Part shown: positions 3,444-14,099 of the stretch, one piece after another | Layout: the number at the start of each line of letters is the position of its first letter | Numbering within the stretch: the first letter of the stretch is position 1 | Assembly: GCA_019912425.1 (NCBI GenBank) | Contig: JAIOIU010000080.1 | Location: 1 to 64,000, forward strand | Direction: 5' to 3' | DNA length: 64,000 bases | Source: Candidatus Methylomirabilis tolerans | Lineage (GTDB): Bacteria > Methylomirabilota > Methylomirabilia > Methylomirabilales > Methylomirabilaceae | Made by a program: the position numbers and the translations under genes | Notes under the pieces: model-generated | Seen by the model: only the letters and a program-made list of their open reading frames with translations | Databases searched by the model: none | Told to the model about the DNA's origin: nothing

Positions 3444-4238
3444 GTGGCGTATGTCAAGACGGATGAAGTCGTTGCGAAGATGATCGAGGTAGGAGTTGCA
3501 AAAGGACAGCTTCCGATAAAGGACCTGCTGATTCGCGGGTTCCTCTCTGGCGCATTGTTAGGCTTCGCCACGACACTCGCCTTTACCGCGACGGTCCAAA
3601 CGGGACTAGGTATTGTCGGCGGGCTGGTGTTTCCTGTCGGCTTCGTCATGGTCATCCTGCTTGGTCTGGAGTTGGTAACGGGGAACTTCGCCGTTGTGCC
3701 GTTGGGTGTACTCGAGGGGAGAATCGATACGCGTGCGCTTTTGCGCAACTGGGGATGGGCCTTTGTCGGCAACCTCCTGGGAAGCCTGCTGTATGCCTTC
3801 ATGTTCGTCGCCGTGACATCCGGCGGGTCGCCGATCGCGGTGAAGTTGGTTCAGGTGGCGGAGGCGAAAACGATCGAGTACGCTCAACTGGGCACAGGGG
3901 GCATGACGAAGGTTGTGATCAAGGCAGTGCTGTGCAACTGGATGGTGACGCTGGGCCTGGTGATGTCGCTCACCTCTGTATCCGTCGTCGGGAAAACGGT
4001 GGCCATGTGGTTACCCATCCTGACCTTCTTCGGGCAGGGATTTGAGCACTCCGTGGTCAATATGTTTCTGATACCGGCAGGCATCATCCTTGGAGCGAAG
4101 ATCTCGCTGGCCGAGTGGTGGCTCTGGAACCAGATTCCGGTGACTGTCGGCAACGTGGTCGGCGGCTTTCTGTTTACCGGCCTTCCGCTCTACATCACCC
4201 ATCATCGTAAGAATCAGGCGCGTTCAACTGCTGAGTGA
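3444..4238 (+). CDS. Formate/nitrite transporter (FNT) family channel
   Basis: 264-residue integral membrane protein of the FocA/NirC family: pentameric channels for small monovalent anions such as formate and nitrite, with six membrane segments per subunit. GTG start, with GGGGAGGT six bases upstream (3431-3438). Family features include the first long hydrophobic segment starting RGFLSGALLGFATT, the LELVTGNFA half-helix region near residue 75, and the later NWMVTLGLVM segment around 170. The substrate cannot be read from sequence, but the neighbouring denitrification-type genes on the opposite strand favour nitrite. It points away from them, so it is probably a separate transcription unit. 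Confidence 0.9.
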   Translation: MAYVKTDEVVAKMIEVGVAKGQLPIKDLLIRGFLSGALLGFATTLAFTATVQTGLGIVGGLVFPVGFVMVILLGLELVTGNFAVVPLGVLEGRIDTRALLRNWGWAFVGNLLGSLLYAFMFVAVTSGGSPIAVKLVQVAEAKTIEYAQLGTGGMTKVVIKAVLCNWMVTLGLVMSLTSVSVVGKTVAMWLPILTFFGQGFEHSVVNMFLIPAGIILGAKISLAEWWLWNQIPVTVGNVVGGFLFTGLPLYITHHRKNQARSTAE

Positions 4239-4348: not shown

Positions 4349-5167
4349 TCAGGACCTCCGTTTCTCTCTGGTGGAGGGCGTGATCATCATAGACATGAAA
4401 GACAGCGCGAGCAGTCCCAACAGGGCTGGGGTAAAAAGAATCAAAAATCCTGGCCCCATTCGCCATTTTCCCGTAATCGGATCGTAGTCGAAGCAGCGAA
4501 AAATGGTGTTGTCCCCGGGAAGGGGATATGAGGGAATAAATTCTCCCTGCATTTCTCTCAATACCTCTGCCAGCCTGGAGGTCGCCTGAAACCCTACGAG
4601 TATTCTCAGGAGATACCCATTCCGATCAATGCCGGCGACCATCGCCGGGTGGTCGTATCCTTTGATCTCTTCGCGCCATTCAATGTGAAATCCCAAGTTT
4701 TGGGTCAGTGCTGCGATCTCTTTCGTCACGCCAAATAGCCAGCGTTCCGGTTGGGGTAAGTCCAGGGCACTCGCCACTCTCATCATATCCTCTGCAGTAT
4801 CCCGAGGATCAAGACTGAGGACCAGCACGCGATATCCATCCACTCGAATGTTTTGCAGTTCGTTCCGAAGATACTGGAGATACGGGTAGCAAATAGTCGG
4901 ACATCTGGTATACACCATCGTGAGAAGAACGGGATGTGTCGTATAGATCTCAGAAAGGCGAATCTCCTTCTGAGCGGTCTGTACAACGATATCCGGGATC
5001 TTGCGATAGACGTATCGATTCTCATCGGGCAATGCCGGTTGCGCAAAGGCGGACGCTGCCGGCAAAAGTATAATGATGCAGGTGATGAACGCCGCCGAAT
5101 ACAGTCGATAGCGCGCTACGACGGAACAATGCGGCGCCTTCGGCAGGATGATAGTTGAACTGAACAT
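4349..5167 (-). CDS. Sco1/SenC family copper chaperone
   Basis: 272 residues from ATG at 5167 (a GTG lies one codon upstream). Sco proteins carry copper to the CuA or CuB centres of heme-copper enzymes and have a thioredoxin-like fold. Counting from that upstream GTG, the copper ligands are visible: the CX3C pair C90/C94 in RCPTICYPY and the distant His-174 in GYDHPAMVAG. An N-terminal hydrophobic signal (residues 25-45, ending ASAFAQ) exports the domain, and a second hydrophobic stretch near the C terminus (LILFTPALLGLLALSFMSMM) should anchor it in the membrane from both ends. It lies downstream on the same strand as the CuA subunit and heme-copper subunit I, recalling the norSY-senC arrangement of ammonia oxidisers. 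Confidence 0.88.
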   Translation of the reverse strand: MFSSTIILPKAPHCSVVARYRLYSAAFITCIIILLPAASAFAQPALPDENRYVYRKIPDIVVQTAQKEIRLSEIYTTHPVLLTMVYTRCPTICYPYLQYLRNELQNIRVDGYRVLVLSLDPRDTAEDMMRVASALDLPQPERWLFGVTKEIAALTQNLGFHIEWREEIKGYDHPAMVAGIDRNGYLLRILVGFQATSRLAEVLREMQGEFIPSYPLPGDNTIFRCFDYDPITGKWRMGPGFLILFTPALLGLLALSFMSMMITPSTREKRRS

Positions 5168-5357
5168 CACACTTTTATATTCCTGGTCCCAGAGTCGTGA
5201 AATTTGTCTACAGGGAATGGGAGCGCTCTTGCTGTCTCCCTCTGCTATCCCCCCGTCACAAGTTCCAGATTAATTCTACCGCTCCGGTGTCGGTATGTCT
5301 AATGCTGCCGACTATGCATTTATCGGTCAGGCCACGGCAAGTGGGCCGAAGCAGCCG

Positions 5358-5900
5358 CTAGAGGAAATCCGTCAGATGGGGATACCTTCTGCGGATTTCC
5401 GTCGCTTCTTGAGAGCCATCCTCGAAGATGCGGTGATCTTCGTATGCAAAGCCTGGTGCGACGGTACATCCGGCCAGCGTGAACTCGCCGGTCGTGCGAG
5501 CCGCCTGCCAGCAGCCGGCGGGCACGATACGGATGGGGCTGCTATCGGTGGCGGGAGGGCCGAGGCGCACACATCCAGGCACCCACGACTCTGGATCGAT
5601 CGTATACAGCTCAAGCGGATCGCCCTCGTAGAAGTGCCACAGCTCGTCCGATTTGACCACATGCCATCGAGCCTTCTCGCCTGCCAACAGCATGAAGTAG
5701 ATCGTCGTGACGGCAGCCCGGCTCCCTCGTGCGTCGGGGGGAAGAACCTGCAGTGGTGAGCGGTAGAACTCGGCAAAGCGGCCACCCTCAGGATGGGGGA
5801 GGAGGGCAAGCTGTCGAATAAGGTCGTTGACTCGAGGATTCACGATTACTTGGCAAGAGACCATCTCTTGATGCTTGACGGATACACTTGAAATGCTCAT
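5358..5900 (-). CDS. Cupin-5 (DUF985) family protein
   Basis: 180 residues from ATG 5900, with AAGGGGG just upstream. Pattern elements LLPHPEGGRFAEFYRS, TTIYFMLL, WHVVKSDELWHFYEGDPLEL and the final CTVAPGFAYEDHRIF are those of the DUF985/cupin-5 family: single-domain beta-barrel proteins whose substrates are mostly unknown. It sits between the heme-copper subunit genes and the Sco gene on the same strand, but nothing in it links it to nitrogen or copper chemistry, so it may be a passenger in the cluster. Confidence 0.85.
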   Translation of the reverse strand: MSISSVSVKHQEMVSCQVIVNPRVNDLIRQLALLPHPEGGRFAEFYRSPLQVLPPDARGSRAAVTTIYFMLLAGEKARWHVVKSDELWHFYEGDPLELYTIDPESWVPGCVRLGPPATDSSPIRIVPAGCWQAARTTGEFTLAGCTVAPGFAYEDHRIFEDGSQEATEIRRRYPHLTDFL

Positions 5901-5990: not shown

Positions 5991-6626
5991 TTATGGGGCT
6001 GTACGAACAAACGAAGCAGCGCTGATTGTTTCCTCAGTAAAGCCAAGCCGGAAGTCGTAACGACGGCCTCCGAATGGAACTTGCAAGGTATCCCAATTCC
6101 GGAGAGTCCATTTCTCCCCCGGCCTTCCTTTAACAGCGGACTCCTCGACCGTATTACACGAGTTATCAGCGATCGAAACAACCTTGAATATCTTTCCGTC
6201 TGAGAAAAATCGAACTACAAGTGCGCCAATGGGTTGACCTGAATCGGTGAACTTGACGCCAATGGCTTCTTCCTTATTCTGGTCTCGCGCGATAAGCACA
6301 ACGTCTCTGGAGCCTTCCTCCAAGATCCGCACTCTGCCGTTTGGAACATTGGAGAAAAACTTCTCAAAGCAGCCCTGTGCCCCTGGTGATTGTGCATCCA
6401 TGAGAGTAGAAGGTTGGTTGGCGGGCTGCGCCGAGGGCACAGTCACAGCAGGCCCTCTTGATGCCGACGTCGCAGCGGGGATCGGACGTGCAAGTTTACG
6501 GTCGAACACTCCGAACGAATAAACAATACTAAGCAGTCCGATGATAGCCGTTATGACCGTCGCTATCCCTGTCAGGATTCCCTGCGTGGAACTCCAGAAG
6601 GATTTCTTGTCGCTCATGTCGTTCAT
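5991..6626 (-). CDS. Hypothetical single-pass membrane protein
   Basis: 211 residues from ATG 6626. One clear membrane segment follows a short cytoplasmic head (ILTGIATVITAIIGLLSIVY, about residues 14-33). Next comes a Pro/Ala/Ser-rich linker to about residue 80, then a compact soluble domain with two Cys (near residues 84 and 156) and beta-rich character. I recognise no family. It is in line with the heme-copper and Sco genes, so a role around that enzyme is possible but unsupported by any motif. Confidence 0.6.
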   Translation of the reverse strand: MNDMSDKKSFWSSTQGILTGIATVITAIIGLLSIVYSFGVFDRKLARPIPAATSASRGPAVTVPSAQPANQPSTLMDAQSPGAQGCFEKFFSNVPNGRVRILEEGSRDVVLIARDQNKEEAIGVKFTDSGQPIGALVVRFFSDGKIFKVVSIADNSCNTVEESAVKGRPGEKWTLRNWDTLQVPFGGRRYDFRLGFTEETISAASFVRTAP

Positions 6627-6751: not shown

Positions 6752-8176
6752 TCAACGGGAAAAGGCTTTAACGCACCTCTTTGATGCGCCAAAGAAAAAG
6801 ACGATGATCCCCAGCAAATATAGTACAGCGAAGACCACGGCAGCTTTGGCCAGTGTTGTGCCAAGGGGCAGATCGGGCGGATAGAGATTGAATCGTCTGG
6901 GGATGGAGAACGTCCCGGAAAGATAAAACATGCTCACGAATCCCCAGCCCCCTAATAAGAGCAACGCAAAGATGCTCCTTGATAATCCGGCTGAGAAGGG
7001 TGTCCCGGACACCTTCTCCGCAAACCAGACGACAAAGGCGAGATTGAAGAAGATCTGACCCAACAGGTTATAGGTATGAAAGTGGGCGGGAACCCACTGG
7101 GTGTTGTGTAGGACAAAATTGTTGACAATTGTCGCATCCAACACGGCCGCTACCCCGCCTATCGCCCAACCCAGCACCCCATAAAAATAAAGGAGAGAGG
7201 CCAGATTCCATTTCATCGAGTTCCGGTAGGTGTAGGCGAGTACACTGAAAATCGTGACCACCGCCGCAGGGAGAGGAGCCAGGAATGAGGCAATCTGACC
7301 GATAAATTGAAATCCGGTCGGCTGGACAAAATCCATGTACAGATGGTGAAAGTAGGCGAACATCACGATAAGAAAGGTTGCATTCCAGGATAAGGCCACA
7401 TACCACGCAGTCTTCCATTTTGCTCGATGGCCGAATCCCGGATAGAGCTCATACAGCACCGCCACCGCCAAATACAGCATTTCATTGACTAGCGTGTGTC
7501 CAAAAATAAACGTCAGATTCTTCATCAGGAGCGCATCGTTTTTCATCCACCCCAGATACTCCCCAAAGTACAGGGTCAGCAGGGTCACCCCGGCAAGCAG
7601 GCAGATAAAAATACCGATCAGCGTCGCGGTGAGAACGACAATGAACGGTGGGACCTCCGGCTCTTTTTTCCCGCGAAGGTAGTGCCAGGCCAGGGCCTGG
7701 GATAATGAATATTTCCGCAAGATGCCGATCAGCATGGACAGGGTCCAGACCAACCAACCTACCCCCAATACTGCAATGCTGATAAGAAAAAGCGGCGTCG
7801 CCCACTCTTCCCATGTTCTGTAAAAGGGAAGCGGATAGAGAAAATACCACCCGGCGGCAAACTTCCCGATAAAGGTCGCAATGATCAGTAAGACCACACC
7901 GATCACCGTCAGGATATAGGCGACAATGTTTCCGACCAACGGTGACCGAGCGTATTTATTCAACAGATAGTCGTTACTGGCCATGCCGATGACAAACCAG
8001 GTACCCGCCATGCCGAGGCCATGGAGGGTGAGGAACGAGAAGAAACGGTCCGCCGGCACGGTGATCACCCCTCCCTGATTGGCACGCATCAAGATGCCGA
8101 GAAGGATCAGGATCGGAAAGAGGATGAGACCGGTATAGGTCCATACGGCGGTCATGCGGGAATATGCTTTTTCCAT
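6752..8176 (-). CDS. norS: Heme-copper oxidoreductase subunit I, NO-reductase-like (sNOR type proposed)
   Basis: 474 residues with about 12 hydrophobic segments; ATG 8176 has GGAGAAG upstream. Metal ligands are visible: H52 and H367 for the low-spin heme, H365 for the active-site heme, and H227, H277, H278 for CuB. In oxygen reductases the residue four after the first CuB His in this helix is the Tyr that cross-links to it in A and B families (HPEVY type). Here the motif is HTLVNE, with Asn-231 in that position and no Tyr in the motif. NO reductases lack this Tyr (Glu in cNOR/qNOR). Combined with a CuA-bearing subunit II and a nearby senC, this matches the sNOR idea (NorSY) best: reduction of NO to N2O with electrons from a periplasmic c-type or copper donor. 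Substrate is inferred; an unusual B-family oxygen reductase cannot be excluded. Confidence 0.72.
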   Translation of the reverse strand: MEKAYSRMTAVWTYTGLILFPILILLGILMRANQGGVITVPADRFFSFLTLHGLGMAGTWFVIGMASNDYLLNKYARSPLVGNIVAYILTVIGVVLLIIATFIGKFAAGWYFLYPLPFYRTWEEWATPLFLISIAVLGVGWLVWTLSMLIGILRKYSLSQALAWHYLRGKKEPEVPPFIVVLTATLIGIFICLLAGVTLLTLYFGEYLGWMKNDALLMKNLTFIFGHTLVNEMLYLAVAVLYELYPGFGHRAKWKTAWYVALSWNATFLIVMFAYFHHLYMDFVQPTGFQFIGQIASFLAPLPAAVVTIFSVLAYTYRNSMKWNLASLLYFYGVLGWAIGGVAAVLDATIVNNFVLHNTQWVPAHFHTYNLLGQIFFNLAFVVWFAEKVSGTPFSAGLSRSIFALLLLGGWGFVSMFYLSGTFSIPRRFNLYPPDLPLGTTLAKAAVVFAVLYLLGIIVFFFGASKRCVKAFSR

Positions 8177-8188
8177 CTCGTCTTCTCC

Positions 8189-8746
8189 TTACCTGACCTC
8201 AAAACTCGTTCGCATAATGAAATGGGCAATGCCGCAGTATTCCAGGCACAGGATATTATATGTGCCGAGTTTTTCAAACCGGATACGCAAGCGGTTGACA
8301 TAACCCGGCATCGCCTGAACCTGAGCGATGATGGTATGTTCCGGGTCGAAGATGCCGAATCCGTGATTCACATCCCGGCTGGTAACGCGAAACTCCACCA
8401 AAGCACCGGCAGGCAGAACGATGCCGCCTGCAGCTTCGGCTGGAGCCCTTTCCTTGTCGAGCGATTCATCGGACAGGGTAAAGGCAAACTGCTGTGACGC
8501 CACAGCGATGATTTTCTCAGGCCGGTCACGGACAAAAAGCAGATAGGGAGAGCGGGGAAGGGTGAAAAAGAACGTCACAACAAGGATGCCGGCAAGCGTG
8601 AGAAACCAGAGACCCCGGTAGCGATTGACCCGTGCAGGTGCAATGTCGGTCGGGTTTTTTGTACTGGCAAACACCATCTGAAAGACAAGCACAAGTATAC
8701 CGGTCACAACCAGAAAACTGATCAGAACAAGAACCTGCTGCGTCAT
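8189..8746 (-). CDS. norY: CuA-containing subunit II of the heme-copper enzyme
   Basis: 185 residues; ATG 8746 follows AGGAGACAGGC. Two hydrophobic segments near the N terminus (about 4-27 and 46-63) precede a periplasmic cupredoxin domain. The binuclear CuA site is complete: C167, E169, C171, H175 and M178 in CLEYCGIAHFIM, plus H128 in RDVNHGFGI. The protein should therefore accept electrons from a soluble donor and pass them to subunit I, encoded 12 bases downstream in the same operon. The short domain and spacing resemble B-family and sNOR subunit II proteins more than A-type CoxB. No cytochrome c domain is fused. Confidence 0.85.
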   Translation of the reverse strand: MTQQVLVLISFLVVTGILVLVFQMVFASTKNPTDIAPARVNRYRGLWFLTLAGILVVTFFFTLPRSPYLLFVRDRPEKIIAVASQQFAFTLSDESLDKERAPAEAAGGIVLPAGALVEFRVTSRDVNHGFGIFDPEHTIIAQVQAMPGYVNRLRIRFEKLGTYNILCLEYCGIAHFIMRTSFEVR

Positions 8747-9203
8747 GCCTGTCTCCTGGATTGGGGCAAGGTCTCATCGATCGTGAGGTGCAACATACCG
8801 CCGAATACGTCGGTCCCGGCCAGGGCGAGTGCTACGTGCCGGTCACAGATTGCGGCGATCCTGTGGCGCTACCTCTGGTTCCTCCACCGTGCGCAGGCGG
8901 TACGGGGCATCTACACAAAAATGCCGAGGGCAGGGGCTGGTACGTTGCGGCCACATCTCGCATATACCACAAGAGGCGATGCCCAATGCCGTCTCGGCCA
9001 GCTTTGCGATCATGGTCACCTTTCTTGTTCGAGAAGGCGACAATCAAAGTAAGCGTATCACAGCCGACTACGATTCAAAAGAGACAAAATAGGCCCAAAC
9101 AGGATAAAAAAGGGTTCTTCCGGGATGAGCGTGGGTCGAGGTCGAGTCTTCAGCGCCGGACATGGGGACACCCTCTTTGCCAAACGAGGCCATGAGGAAA
9201 GAG
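8747..9203. other. Upstream region of the NO-reductase-like genes
   Basis: About 460 bases with no convincing gene. On the minus strand a 66-codon frame (8843-9043) with several cysteines and an AAAGGTG motif before an internal ATG at 9028 could encode a small protein, but I recognise no relatives. Promoter elements for the operon should lie here; I could not identify them confidently. Confidence 0.3.
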
Positions 9204-9440
9204 AAAAACCCCCTTCGATCCCCCTTTGCGAAAGGGGGAGAAACGATAGATGTGCAAGCCTGTGGTCCCTCCTCGCCTGCTCAACGGGGAGTAGCGCGAG
9301 AGTGTAGTCCCCCCCTTTTGGAAAAGGGGGAGAAACGATAGATGTGCAAGCATGCGGTCCCTCCTCGCCTGCTCAACGGGGAGAAGCCCTAGGGTGTGGT
9401 TCCCCCCTTTGGAAAAGGGGGGTTAGGGGGGTTTATCTTT
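9204..9440. repeat. Cluster of C/G-rich palindromes and a 92-base tandem repeat
   Basis: Three palindromes of the form CCCCC-TTT-(n)-AAA-GGGGG occur at about 9210-9240, 9308-9331 and 9400-9440. The sequence between the first two (from GAGAAACGATAG at 9238) recurs with a period of 92 bases at 9330, with minor changes (for example CCTGTGG to CATGCGG). The last arm reads on into GGTTAGGGGGG. A related palindrome occurs inside the AsmA-like gene at 16891-16940. No spacers or cas genes, so this is not a CRISPR array. Confidence 0.75.
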
Positions 9441-9458
9441 GGCACAAGGGAGAAAGGG

Positions 9459-9483
9459 TGTGCGTATCTGTACGCAGACAGGT
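9459..9483. repeat. Diverged copy of the CTGTCTGCGT palindrome family
   Basis: TGTGCGTATCTGTACGCAGACAGG-type sequence, an imperfect palindrome related to the elements at 40046-40082, 44440-44471, 45548-45582 and 46720-46752. Confidence 0.45.
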
Positions 9484-9559
9484 TCACCCACGCGAATTCC
9501 GGAAGAACCAAAAAGGTAATAGTCGGTTGAAACGGAATCGGGGATGATGGGAATCAGGA

Positions 9560-9652
9560 GGGAGAGTGGGGGACGCCGAGAGAGGTGAGGAAGGCGTTGC
9601 AGATCGAGGATCTGCTCCAGCATTTTGTGCGTTCCGGAGCCGCGCCCCCTGA
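9560..9652 (-). pseudogene. LysR-type regulator remnant with internal deletion
   Basis: On the minus strand RGSGTHKMLEQ matches the effector-domain segment RGSGTRKIMEQ of the intact LysR protein encoded at 14100-15014. Without a gap, but in another frame, it runs into SICNAFLTSLGV, which matches the C-terminal PICNAFLTFLGV of that protein. Roughly 75 codons between the two segments are missing and the frame is shifted. It is therefore a scrambled relic of a second copy of the same or a closely related regulator. Confidence 0.6.
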
Positions 9653-9734
9653 AAAATACGGCGCCTGAGCCGGAGGGGTCCGAAAATCGTTGAGGACACT
9701 CGTGGGCGCCGGGCTCCGGCATTCTCCGCTGGTG

Positions 9735-11246
9735 TCATGCGTGGACGCCCGCGTCGGACACTCCGCACGAGGCCCGATTGCTCCAGCGCTTAATGTACTC
9801 ACGGACGCGCAGCTTACGTCGGGTGTTGACGCTCGACATGTAGCGGATCATGCCGAAGACCTCGCGCTCAGGCCCCCAGGCTCGGTCATAGCGGCCCAGC
9901 ACCCAGAAGATGCCGCTGTACGAGTTCGGGTCGCGCCCATCAACGGCGTACCTGTTGTTCAGCTCGATCATGATCTCGAGTGCCGCCTGCGGACTCTCGC
10001 TCCAGTGCAGGATCTTCTTGCCCCACAGCATCCGCAGGTAGTTGTGGATGCGGCCCTCGATCACCAGTTGGTTTTGAGCCGCGTTCCAGAGCTCGTCGTG
10101 GGTCTGTGCGTCCTCGAACTGCTCCAGCGTGTACAGGTGTGGGCGCCGGTCGCAGGCGTGCCGTTGGAGCGTCGCGCGAGCCCAGTTGGGGAGCGACTCG
10201 AATTGGTTGTAGTCGCCGCGGTGCGCACAGAAGTTGAAGCCCAGCTCCCGCCAGGTTACGAGTTCGTCCAGGAAGGATTCGGCGGCTCCGTCCATCCCCC
10301 ACCAGCCCGAGGACCCGCCGGTTGCGGAGCCCGATATGTCCTTCGCCGACCAGTTTTCGCGCGCGGCGATCTCCGCGAGGACCTCGTGCGCCGACACGTG
10401 CCCGAAGTGCAGGTAGGGCGAGAGTCCGCTGGTGGCGTCGGAGTCCGGATGATTGCGTTGGTCGCAGTAGCGCGCAAGCCGCTGATCGAGGAAGCGCTGG
10501 AGTGTCCGACGACCAGCCCTCGCGCCACCCGAATAGAGGACGGGCGGGACTGTGTGGTCGATAGGCACGCTCGACGCCAATGTGATGTCACCATTGAGCA
10601 ACGCGGGCCCGGCCTGGGGCCAGCGATCGGCGACCCCCTCCGGCAGGCGTTCGAGGGGAGGGAGGTGCCCGCTGAGCAAAGCGCGGTGCGGCGTTATCGA
10701 AAGATGCGGTGCGAGCTCGCGCCGCAGGAAACGTCGGAAATCGAAGGCGCGTGCGAACACATTGCCGGTCGCACGCATCGGCAGAAGTCCGTGAGTGTCA
10801 ACCGCCTCGAGCCGCACCGGGAGCTTTCTTGCCGCCGCCGTGATCACGCGTGGGAAGAAGAATGCCGGGTAGTCGTCGGTCACGACGGTGCAGGCGTGCG
10901 CCGCGAGGTGTTCAATGAGTCCCTTGCCCGCGCCCGCCGTAGGCTCGACGTACGGGTAGTAAAGGATGCCGGTGCCGCTGAAAGCGCGCGCGTTGTCCGC
11001 CATGCCATCGATCACGAAGCGGTGGGTGCGGTCGCTGGCCCATCGGTCATCCGCGTACAACGTCTCCAACACGATCAGCGGCCGGTTAAGGTTGCCGGCG
11101 AGTTCGACGGCGCGATCGAGTGCGAAGTTCCACCGCGCACGGCGCGCGGCGATCATCCAGTAGAGAACGTAGCTGCCATCCGTTCTCACGTCCCCGCCGT
11201 TCAGGTTCCTTCGGCGGATCTCTGGGATGCGGTCGGCGCTGCTCAT
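9735..11246 (-). CDS. phr: Class II deoxyribodipyrimidine photolyase
   Basis: About 503 residues. Start taken as ATG 11246; GTG 11252 is also possible. Class II CPD photolyases use a flavin and blue light to split cyclobutane pyrimidine dimers. Family markers are visible: an N-terminal antenna-domain region (YVLYWMIAARRARWNFAL) and a C-terminal FAD-binding helical domain with the motifs WNAAQNQLVIEGRIHNYLRM, WGKKILHWS, LNNRYAVDGRDPNSYSG and FGMIRYM, all typical of class II rather than class I. It ends a three-gene minus-strand group with DUF523-DUF1722 and an SDR protein, only 13 bases after the DUF523 stop. A long opposite-strand open frame over the same DNA is an antisense shadow. Confidence 0.9.
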   Translation of the reverse strand: MSSADRIPEIRRRNLNGGDVRTDGSYVLYWMIAARRARWNFALDRAVELAGNLNRPLIVLETLYADDRWASDRTHRFVIDGMADNARAFSGTGILYYPYVEPTAGAGKGLIEHLAAHACTVVTDDYPAFFFPRVITAAARKLPVRLEAVDTHGLLPMRATGNVFARAFDFRRFLRRELAPHLSITPHRALLSGHLPPLERLPEGVADRWPQAGPALLNGDITLASSVPIDHTVPPVLYSGGARAGRRTLQRFLDQRLARYCDQRNHPDSDATSGLSPYLHFGHVSAHEVLAEIAARENWSAKDISGSATGGSSGWWGMDGAAESFLDELVTWRELGFNFCAHRGDYNQFESLPNWARATLQRHACDRRPHLYTLEQFEDAQTHDELWNAAQNQLVIEGRIHNYLRMLWGKKILHWSESPQAALEIMIELNNRYAVDGRDPNSYSGIFWVLGRYDRAWGPEREVFGMIRYMSSVNTRRKLRVREYIKRWSNRASCGVSDAGVHA

Positions 11247-11259
11247 CGCCACAAGGTCT

Positions 11260-12264
11260 TCACGGGTGGTTGCGGAGCATCAGCTCCTTGGGATGAGGGT
11301 CGAAGTAAAGCTGACCGGGGAGGTATTCGACCGAGTGGCGCCGGATGCCGTAGCGCAGCAGCGCCACCGGGACCACGAGCGGTACAAGCCCCTGGCGAAA
11401 GTCCTCAATTGTGGCGAGGACTTCGCGCTTTTCGATGGCATCGAGCGCGTTTTTCAGGTAGCCCAGCGCGTGCAAAAGCACGTTGGTGTGTTTCTTTCGC
11501 GTGGCCACCGTGCGCAGGGACTCGTGAAACTCCGATTCATAAGCGTCAAAGAGTTCGCGATCGGGTATAGTCCCGGCGCTTCCGACGAGCTTCCCGAGGC
11601 GCCGGTATGCCGCCTCGTTATGGGCTCGCAGGAGCAGTTTGTGGGCGGTGTGAAACTGTATCAGGCGCCTGCGGCTCAGCCCACGCCGGACGAGTACGCG
11701 CCAGCGATTGCGGCTGAATGCGCGCTCGATGAAGTTCTCGCGCAGGATCGGATCGTTCAGGCGCCCGTCTTCCTCAACCGGCAGCGCGGGCCAGTGCTCC
11801 ATCAGCGTGCGGGCGAAGAGCCCGGACTCGTTACGCGCGACCGGGACGCCGTTCCGGTAGACCCGAATACGTTCCATCCCGCAGGAGGGCGAGGCCTTCT
11901 TCACAATATAGCCATCGAGTCCAAGGCGGAAGAGCTCGGCGACTTTATCTGTGGCGTAGGCCAGCATGAGCTCGGTGAAGTCTTTGCCGTTGGAGGGCGC
12001 CACCAACCGCGTCCCGCGCCCTTCCTCCACAAGCCGCACCGTCGGCCGCGGGGCGCCCATGCCGATCTCCATCTCGGGACACACCGGGGCAAGCTCGAAC
12101 CACTGGCCGAGTGTGTCCGTTACGAAGCGGTCCCGCGCGTGTCCGCCGTCGAATCGCACTTTCTCACCGATGAGGCAGGAGGATACGCCCAGCCGCAGCG
12201 GTACGTCCGCCGAGTGCCAGCTCTGCCAGCAGCCGTGTTCGACGAATTCTGTGTTCGTCTTCAT
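11260..12264 (-). CDS. DUF523-DUF1722 (YbgA-type) fusion protein
   Basis: 334 residues from ATG 12264, chosen because GAGGTCGC precedes it and it falls 13 bases after the upstream gene's stop. The first half is DUF523 (LGVSSCLIGEKVRFDGGH, LAPVCPEMEIGMGAPRP, KKASPSCG), with three conserved cysteines suited to metal or iron-sulfur binding. The second half is DUF1722 (FHTAHKLLLRAHNEAAYRRL, and YSLGPL-like helices). Such fusions often lie next to photolyase genes; some related proteins have been linked to DNA repair or thiouracil handling, but that is family lore, not visible here. Confidence 0.82.
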   Translation of the reverse strand: MKTNTEFVEHGCWQSWHSADVPLRLGVSSCLIGEKVRFDGGHARDRFVTDTLGQWFELAPVCPEMEIGMGAPRPTVRLVEEGRGTRLVAPSNGKDFTELMLAYATDKVAELFRLGLDGYIVKKASPSCGMERIRVYRNGVPVARNESGLFARTLMEHWPALPVEEDGRLNDPILRENFIERAFSRNRWRVLVRRGLSRRRLIQFHTAHKLLLRAHNEAAYRRLGKLVGSAGTIPDRELFDAYESEFHESLRTVATRKKHTNVLLHALGYLKNALDAIEKREVLATIEDFRQGLVPLVVPVALLRYGIRRHSVEYLPGQLYFDPHPKELMLRNHP

Positions 12265-12277
12265 GCGACCTCGGACC

Positions 12278-13738
12278 TCATCTCGTCCTCGTACCGGCCC
12301 GGCGACGACCTGTAGTCGCCGCATCGGCGATACGATCGAGCATGCGGGAAAAGACTATGCGGTGCAGAGGATACGCCAGATACCAGTAGGCCAGGCCTGC
12401 GAGACCGATCGGGTCGAAGAGCGCCGTTTGCCGGATCGTGGCGCCGCCCTCGCGCGGTTCGACCATGAATTCGAGCCAGGCGCGCCCTGGGAGCTTCATT
12501 TCGGCTGAGAGCCGCAGCAGCCGATTCGGCTCGTACGCCTCGACTCGCCAGAAGTCGAGGGCATCGCCGACGTGTATCCGTTCCGGCGAAGACCGCCCGC
12601 GCCGCACGCCCACGCCCCCGACGAGCAAATCGAAAAACCCGCGCAGCCGCCACAACCAATCGTAGGCATACCACCCGGTCTCACCGCCGATGCGGCGGAT
12701 CGGTGCGAAGGCTTCCTCCGGGCCCACGTCGACCGCGCGCGACCGCGAGTCGATGAAGCGGTTGTGGAAACGTACCCCGGTCCAACTGCGGCCCTCGCCT
12801 CCTGACGAGAAGGCGTCGTACCAGCGGCTCTCGGCGACCTCGCGCTCCTCGTTGCGGATGGCTGCCGCGATTGCGTCGCGCATGCCGCGTGGCCGCACGG
12901 GAAAGATCTCCAGCGCCGAGGGGTCGCGCACGACGGTCGGGTGCTTGATCGACTCGATGAGCTTACGGCCGACTCGTGCGTAAATTGGCGTGACCAGCCC
13001 AAGCCACAGGCTCGACAGCTTCGGCGTCAGAAACGGCACGCGGATCATCGCGCGACGCAGCCCGCGTTGTCGCGCGTATTCGCGCATCAGGTCTCCGTAC
13101 GATACGCAGTCGCCGCCGCCGATTTCAAACACCCGGCTCTCGGTGAGCGGTACGTTCAGCGCGGCGATCAGGTAGGCCAACAGGTCGTCGATGGCAATCG
13201 GCTGCGCCTTCACCTCGACCCAACGCGGCGTAATCATGATCGGCAGGCGTTCGACCAGCGCGCGGATCATTTCAAAAGACAGGCTCCCCGAGCCGAGCAC
13301 GATCGAGGCCCGCAGCTCGATCACGGGCACTCCAGACTCGCGAAGCACCTCACCAACCTCGTGGCGGCTTCTCAAGTGCGGTGAAAGATCCTCGCCGTGC
13401 CCGAGGCCACCAAGGTAAATGATGCGCTGCACTCCGGCCATCCGTGCCGCCGACCCGAAGTTGCGCGCAGCCACCCGATCCTGCTCCTCGAAGTCTTGTC
13501 CAGAGCCCATCGAATGGACGAGGTAATAGGCCGCGTCGACCCCGGCGAGCGCGTGGTCAAGCGTCTCAGCCTTCAGCATGTCGCCCTCGACCACCTCAGT
13601 CGCCGCTCCGACCCGCGATGCGAGCCCCGCCCGCCGCCGTCCGAGGCACCGCACCCGCCGGCCATCCGCTTCGAGCCGGCGCCAGAGCCGCCCCCCGACA
13701 TAGCCGGTAGCGCCCGTAACGAGCACGAGACCGTTCAT
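12278..13738 (-). CDS. SDR-family NAD(P)-binding protein with DUF2867
   Basis: 486 residues. The N terminus has the Rossmann nucleotide-binding motif GATGYVGG (residues 8-15) of atypical short-chain dehydrogenases, continuing through LGGLGHGEDLSPHLRSRHEV. The C-terminal third (from about residue 330, HNRFIDSRSRAVDV onward, with FWRVEAYEPNRLLRLSAEMK and ARAWLEF-type strands) is the DUF2867/SRPBCC-like domain usually fused to it. Substrate unknown. First gene of the photolyase group; similar neighbours occur together in many bacteria, suggesting a shared light or oxidative stress role. Confidence 0.85.
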   Translation of the reverse strand: MNGLVLVTGATGYVGGRLWRRLEADGRRVRCLGRRRAGLASRVGAATEVVEGDMLKAETLDHALAGVDAAYYLVHSMGSGQDFEEQDRVAARNFGSAARMAGVQRIIYLGGLGHGEDLSPHLRSRHEVGEVLRESGVPVIELRASIVLGSGSLSFEMIRALVERLPIMITPRWVEVKAQPIAIDDLLAYLIAALNVPLTESRVFEIGGGDCVSYGDLMREYARQRGLRRAMIRVPFLTPKLSSLWLGLVTPIYARVGRKLIESIKHPTVVRDPSALEIFPVRPRGMRDAIAAAIRNEEREVAESRWYDAFSSGGEGRSWTGVRFHNRFIDSRSRAVDVGPEEAFAPIRRIGGETGWYAYDWLWRLRGFFDLLVGGVGVRRGRSSPERIHVGDALDFWRVEAYEPNRLLRLSAEMKLPGRAWLEFMVEPREGGATIRQTALFDPIGLAGLAYWYLAYPLHRIVFSRMLDRIADAATTGRRRAGTRTR

Positions 13739-14099
13739 GCTGATCCCGTGGACCTCAGCACGTAGTCCTCAGTATCCGCATACGGGGAACCGTCCGTTGC
13801 TGTTCCAGAAGAATCCGTACAGCCCATCGGCCTCACTATGAGTAAAATGATTGGCGTATCTCTCCACATCGGTCTGACCGTTACAGTAAATCCTATTGAC
13901 TGTTTCCTTTCTTAGCAAGATATTTCCGCCTTTCTGCAGCATGGCAAACACTGCACGCCTGGTCAGCCTATTCCGGCGGACTCCAATGGTATGTGCAGAT
14001 CGAAGTCGAGTCGATCAGGACCCGTGAGGCGCAAGCGTTCAGACCAGAAAAGACACGTCTGGTGCACAGCGGGCCCGTCCCCGCAGTCTTTCCGCGGAA
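13739..14099. other. Intergenic spacer
   Basis: 360 bases between the SDR gene and the end of the LysR gene. A 60-codon minus-strand frame (13769-13951) has protein-like composition but no recognisable family and no clear ribosome site; I do not call it as a gene. This region should contain the promoter of the photolyase group. Confidence 0.3.

What the first reader, a model, noticed from the sequence alone, without database searches (positions are those of the whole stretch)
6752..8746. CuA-type heme-copper enzyme with Asn in place of the active-site Tyr
Subunit I keeps all six heme and CuB histidines (H52, H227, H277, H278, H365, H367), but the cross-linking Tyr position four residues after the first CuB His in that helix is Asn-231 (HTLVNE). 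Subunit II has a complete CuA site. Loss of this Tyr is a mark of NO reductases; the CuA partner rules out simple cNOR or qNOR. The best fit is the little-studied sNOR (NorSY) group. In an NO-centred organism this would be a second NO sink competing with NO dismutation.
Basis: partly seen in the sequence, partly recalled or inferred. Interest (0 to 1): 0.75.

Follow-up and report, generated by a model that had tools for sequence, protein, structure and literature searches.

The report
Known CuA-type nitric oxide reductase (sNOR)
The two genes encode a membrane enzyme of the oxygen-reductase superfamily that lacks the tyrosine needed for oxygen chemistry and is almost certainly a nitric oxide reductase of the sNOR (NorSY) type, which has already been reported from this group of methane-eating Methylomirabilis bacteria.

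Summary
Subunit I (6752-8176, minus strand, 474 aa) keeps all six heme/CuB histidines and has Asn-231 where heme-copper oxidases have the cross-linking Tyr. Subunit II (8189-8746, minus) has a complete CuA site. No C-family Tyr replaces it: that column (271) is Val. Asn-231 is invariant in 91 of 91 relatives from many phyla. They form one clade (100/100), apart from A-, B- and C-type oxidases, gNOR and qNOR/NOD; it includes Ruegeria (formerly Silicibacter) pomeroyi, and Silicibacter is a listed sNOR bearer. The CuA gene adjoins in nearly all; most have a SCO/SenC gene nearby, as here (4349-5170). It is also already published: sNOR is named in Ca. Methylomirabilis oxyfera, M. lanthanidiphila and M. 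tolerans (PMC6094997, PMC8906906). 'Second NO sink' understates it: the genome also has qNOR, gNOR-like and NOD genes. NO turnover by a purified sNOR was not found in the papers read. One side result may be new: the genus carries two non-orthologous sNOR lineages, never together (5 genomes, 6 genomes, 4 with neither; single origin rejected, p-AU 7e-5).

The parts
6752..8176 (-). norS-like: heme-copper subunit I, 474 aa, 12 predicted helices; Asn-231 (codon 7484-7486) replaces the cross-linking Tyr
   Evidence: COX1 PF00115 E 2.6e-42; residues; tree; model pLDDT 87.9
8189..8746 (-). norY-like: CuA subunit II, 185 aa, two N-terminal hydrophobic helices, complete CuA motif
   Evidence: COX2 PF00116 E 4.6e-8; CoxB TIGR02866 1.6e-21, below cut-off; ligands and 12-base gap to norS holding GGAG
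4349..5170 (-). SCO1/SenC-type copper chaperone (CPTIC, His-174)
   Evidence: PF02630 E 2.4e-8; SCO found in the fetched DNA of 83 of 94 relative loci, mostly directly downstream
5991..6626 (-). orf211, unknown protein between norS and the SCO gene; kept in G006 (M. oxyfera-like, 89%), not found in the clusters of other genera
   Evidence: no Pfam match
5358..5900 (-). cupin (DUF985) between orf211 and the SCO gene; mostly deleted in G006; probably a passenger
   Evidence: PF06172 E 2.4e-41
3444..4238 (+). formate/nitrite transporter family protein next to the cluster, possible associate
   Evidence: PF01226 E 2.5e-68; FNT also near norSY in 12 of 94 loci incl. Thermomicrobium roseum and Ruegeria pomeroyi; about 600 bases of it are missing in G006

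Best explanation
This is an sNOR (NorSY): a two-subunit, membrane-bound, CuA-containing nitric oxide reductase of the heme-copper superfamily. Electrons from a periplasmic cytochrome c (or similar donor) enter at CuA in subunit II, pass through the low-spin heme (ligands H52 and H367) to the binuclear centre (heme on H365; CuB on H227, H277, H278), and reduce two NO to N2O. With no cross-linked Tyr to supply an electron and proton for O-O cleavage, the site is set for NO rather than O2. A SCO/SenC chaperone nearby loads CuA. In this NO-dismutating methanotroph it most likely serves as a NO safety valve beside qNOR and gNOR. Shown: sequence, ligands, loss of Tyr, gene cluster, clade. Inferred: metal content, electron donor, NO turnover, physiological role.
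For: Six His and complete CuA. Asn at the Tyr position in 91/91 relatives; Asn is the tabulated active-site residue of sNOR and of the characterised CuA-NOR (PMC8756737 Table A4; PMC3475470). No substitute helix-7 Tyr. One clade at 100/100 with R. pomeroyi, apart from A, B, C, gNOR, qNOR/NOD. CuA subunit next to it in 93/94 loci and a SCO gene found in 83/94. The model has 12 helices and the heme-copper fold, TM 0.77-0.85 to oxidases. Of the B-type K-path residues checked, Y244 is hydrophobic and S309 mostly Ala. The host genome has a cd1 nitrite reductase gene, so it can make NO, and has NOD. Published as sNOR in M. oxyfera Damo_0801-0802, and norSY is transcribed in M. tolerans.
Against: No sNOR has been purified in any paper read here; O2 reduction has been argued for the Nitrosomonas enzyme from its induction under O2 limitation (PMC6967387). 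M. oxyfera releases little N2O (PMC6094997). The nitrifier NorS sequences could not be fetched for the tree; the only named anchor is R. pomeroyi, and the literature table gives the genus Silicibacter, not the species.
Confidence: 0.83

Rival explanations
1. A Tyr-less high-affinity oxygen reductase: it uses the O2 made by NO dismutation, with NO reduction as a side reaction.
For: CuB-type His set and SCO/CuA architecture as in oxidases; the nearest solved relatives by profile are ba3 and aa3-600 oxidases; induction of Nitrosomonas sNOR under O2 limitation (PMC6967387).
Against: The cross-linked Tyr is absent in 91/91 with no substitute; all oxygen reductases in the tree form other groups; the genome already has an aa3-type oxidase (L001, HPEVY).
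Confidence: 0.12
2. It belongs to bNOR (Bacillus CuA-NOR type I), not sNOR, both having Asn.
For: Same Tyr-to-Asn change and CuA subunit (PMC3475470).
Against: bNOR subunit I is longer (1,707-base gene, 13 helices) with a one-helix subunit II. This one has 12 helices and a two-helix subunit II, matching 'type II' of the same paper. It groups with Ruegeria and not with ba3. No bNOR sequence was in the tree.
Confidence: 0.05

Closest known systems
sNOR (NorSY) of Ca. Methylomirabilis oxyfera / lanthanidiphila (Damo_0801-0802, mela_2378-2377; PMC6094997)
   Same: G006 (single contig of 2,752,854 bases, taken by size, from memory, to be M. oxyfera) has one sNOR, 97% identical, with the same neighbours orf211 and SCO
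   Different: In G006 the cupin and FNT genes are largely deleted and the LysR gene lies next to norY; in the window about 5 kb separates them
sNOR of Silicibacter/Ruegeria, nitrifiers and Geobacillus; 'qCuANOR type II' of Bacillus (PMC8756737, PMC3475470)
   Same: Asn at the Tyr position, CuA subunit II, SCO/SenC; 12-helix subunit I and two-helix subunit II in type II
   Different: About 32% identity over aligned columns to Ruegeria; the Bacillus cluster has a further small membrane-protein gene not seen here
ba3 (B-type) oxygen reductase, Thermus thermophilus
   Same: Among the best-matching solved families by profile; same His ligands, Y248 and T312 counterparts
   Different: Tyr-237 is Asn, Y244 Val, S309 Ala; separate clade
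gNOR of Methylomirabilis
   Same: Weakly next to sNOR in the tree (89/74)
   Different: CuB His-1 and Tyr positions are both Asp

Membership tests
sNOR (NorSY) | Heme-copper subunit I with six His and Asn at the cross-linking Tyr position | tested here: met
   definition from PMC8756737 Table A4
sNOR (NorSY) | CuA (cupredoxin) subunit II gene next to it | tested here: met
   93 of 94 loci
sNOR (NorSY) | senC/SCO linked to norSY | tested here: met
   PF02630 at 4349-5170, with orf211 and the cupin gene in between
sNOR (NorSY) | Groups with named sNOR sequences | tested here: met
   One clade 100/100 with R. pomeroyi; nitrifier NorS not available for the tree
sNOR (NorSY) | NO to N2O activity | not testable with these tools
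   needs enzyme; not shown on purified sNOR in the papers read
B-type oxygen reductase | Cross-linked Tyr at H+4 | tested here: not met
   Asn in the window; Tyr in 9/9 ba3 rows
C-type (cbb3) oxygen reductase | Tyr on helix 7, six residues before the HH pair | tested here: not met
   V271; V/I/L/F in 91 relatives
cNOR/qNOR/NOD | HxWVE helix-6 motif; heme-c subunit or fused quinol domain instead of CuA | tested here: not met
gNOR | Asp at the Tyr position | tested here: not met
   Asn here; Asp in L127/L128
eNOR | Gln at the Tyr position | tested here: not met
   Asn here; Gln in the eNOR-like L172, which groups near ba3
bNOR (CuA-NOR type I) | 13-helix subunit I, one-helix subunit II, Asn | tested here: not met
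   12 helices, two hydrophobic stretches in subunit II; definition from PMC3475470

The most novel reading that the evidence does not exclude
Methylomirabilis species acquired two non-orthologous sNORs independently and never keep both, so a Tyr-less CuA NO reductase is a repeatedly recruited, replaceable part of NO-dismutating methanotrophy, and may balance NO against O2 supply instead of being a rarely used relic.
Probability: 0.3. Interest if true: 0.45.

Novelty: already known. Interest (0 to 1): 0.2.

Why it matters
Organisms that make O2 from NO need to control NO. A CuA-linked NO reductase beside NOD, qNOR and gNOR could divert NO to N2O, a greenhouse gas, and this genome has all of these genes. 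The identification itself adds little beyond the published annotations. What remains open, and testable here, is whether sNOR reduces NO or O2 in vivo and why the genus has two non-orthologous versions.

Tried and rejected
C-family-style Tyr on helix 7: rejected (V271). Y275 near the HH pair as a substitute: rejected, it is Phe in 29 of 91 relatives and aligns to Gly in Thermus ba3. Placement in A, B, C, gNOR, qNOR/NOD or eNOR groups: rejected by tree and motif. Viral or phage origin: no relatives in phage records or viral contigs. NCBIfam gave only sub-threshold oxidase models. Nitrosomonas/Nitrosococcus NorS and Bacillus bNOR sequences could not be fetched; the key 2024 PNAS survey (Murali et al.) is not in the library. 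One script picked a wrong frame for the Haloarcula ba3 row; it was corrected before the tree. Nearest solved structures by fold are A-type and ba3 oxidases about equally, so fold alone does not decide the subfamily.

Full report
What is there. The window is contig C80 of a 2.65 Mb genome. A Ca. Methylomirabilis sp. contig (isolate Ru_enrich_MO2) encodes the identical subunit I. On the minus strand lie a 185-aa CuA subunit II (8189-8746) and, 12 bases later, a 474-aa subunit I (6752-8176), then orf211 (5991-6626), a DUF985 cupin (5358-5900) and a SCO1/SenC protein (4349-5170). A formate/nitrite transporter gene (3444-4238) lies on the plus strand beyond.

Active site. All six histidines are present and the H+4 position is Asn-231. 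Alignments to bovine-type aa3, to Thermus and Aquifex ba3 and among 63 sequences agree on this column. cbb3 enzymes carry their Tyr on helix 7, six residues before the HH pair; that column is Val-271 here and V/I/L/F in 91 relatives. CuA ligands are complete, as in 112 of 113 subunit II relatives. Of the B-type K-path residues checked, Y248 and T312 have counterparts (Y242, T308), Y244 is Val and S309 is Ala (Thermus numbering from own knowledge, corrected by six for the construct).

Relatives. A scan of genome contigs gave 80 loci from Bacteroidota, Acidobacteriota, Planctomycetota, Myxococcota, Bdellovibrionota, Spirochaetota, Actinomycetota and Pseudomonadota, among others. Plasmid records added Thermomicrobium roseum, Ruegeria pomeroyi and Parasedimentitalea. 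N231 is invariant in 91 of 91, although the scan patterns did not include it. The CuA gene adjoins in 93 of 94 loci; a SCO gene is found in 83 of 94, mostly directly downstream, and some loci are too short to tell.

Tree. IQ-TREE with a mixture model on 461 columns puts the 35 Asn-bearing sequences in one clade at 100/100. A-type, B-type ba3, C-type, qNOR/NOD and gNOR are each separate. The join of sNOR with gNOR is weak (89/74) and involves long branches. The window protein sits with M. oxyfera-like G006 (97%), G004 and G013, and with an Acidobacteria-labelled MAG (82%).

Structure. An AlphaFold2 model (pLDDT 87.9, pTM 0.90) has 12 membrane helices and matches heme-copper oxidase subunits I at TM 0.77-0.85. 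Twelve helices plus a two-helix subunit II match Bacillus 'qCuANOR type II', not type I/bNOR.

Function. NO reduction is inferred from the missing Tyr, the clade and a genome with a cd1 nitrite reductase gene, NOD fragments at contig ends (SHNFYW, NHAH), a qNOR (HLWVE) and a gNOR-like fragment (C10). No purified sNOR activity is reported in the papers read, and an O2 role has been argued in Nitrosomonas. Overall confidence that this is an sNOR is about 0.95; that its main reaction is NO to N2O, about 0.8.

Known or new. Versantvoort et al. 2018 (PMC6094997) list one sNOR in M. oxyfera (Damo_0801-0802) and one in M. lanthanidiphila, none in M. limnetica, and suggest a role against nitrosative stress. 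A 2022 paper (PMC8906906) adds M. tolerans with transcribed norSY. The finding is therefore already known.

Side result. In the genus, five genomes carry the window type, six carry a second type at about 37-41% identity with HTLAN, and four carry neither; none has both. Some of the genomes without a hit are only about 80% complete. Holding both types as one clade is rejected (p-AU 7e-5); the group was named after the tree was seen, so this p is optimistic. The second type has a complete CuA subunit next to it and no SCO gene found beside it.

Noticed in passing
L013-L018, L200, L201 (G001, G003, G005, G008, G010, G012): A second, non-orthologous sNOR lineage in the same genus, about 37-41% identical to the window type, with its own CuA subunit and no SCO gene found beside it; never found in the same genome as the window type; single origin rejected.
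   Followed up: partly
window 9109-14094: About 5 kb holding a 505-aa ORF that looks photolyase-like (no Pfam hit), a thiouracil-desulfurase/DUF1722 gene and an NmrA/DUF2867 gene lies between norY and a LysR gene that are adjacent in G006; a 97-base stretch at 9510-9606 resembles the 3' end of the LysR gene region, suggesting insertion with a partial duplication.
   Followed up: partly
window 3444-4238: A formate/nitrite transporter gene lies beside norSY here and in other loci (Thermomicrobium, Ruegeria, Acidobacteria and others; 12 of 94 in all); about 600 bases of it are missing in G006.
   Followed up: partly
window 9220-9403: Tandem pair of 92-base repeats, 88% identical, starting with a C-run/G-run hairpin-like stretch.
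   Followed up: no
window 5158-5799: The cupin gene is largely deleted in G006, leaving a remnant in frame upstream of the SCO gene.
   Followed up: no
L043: A contig labelled Acidobacteria (isolate nzgw67) carries a NorS 82% identical to the window's, far above other relatives outside Methylomirabilis (about 58% or less); possible recent transfer or misbinned contig.
   Followed up: no
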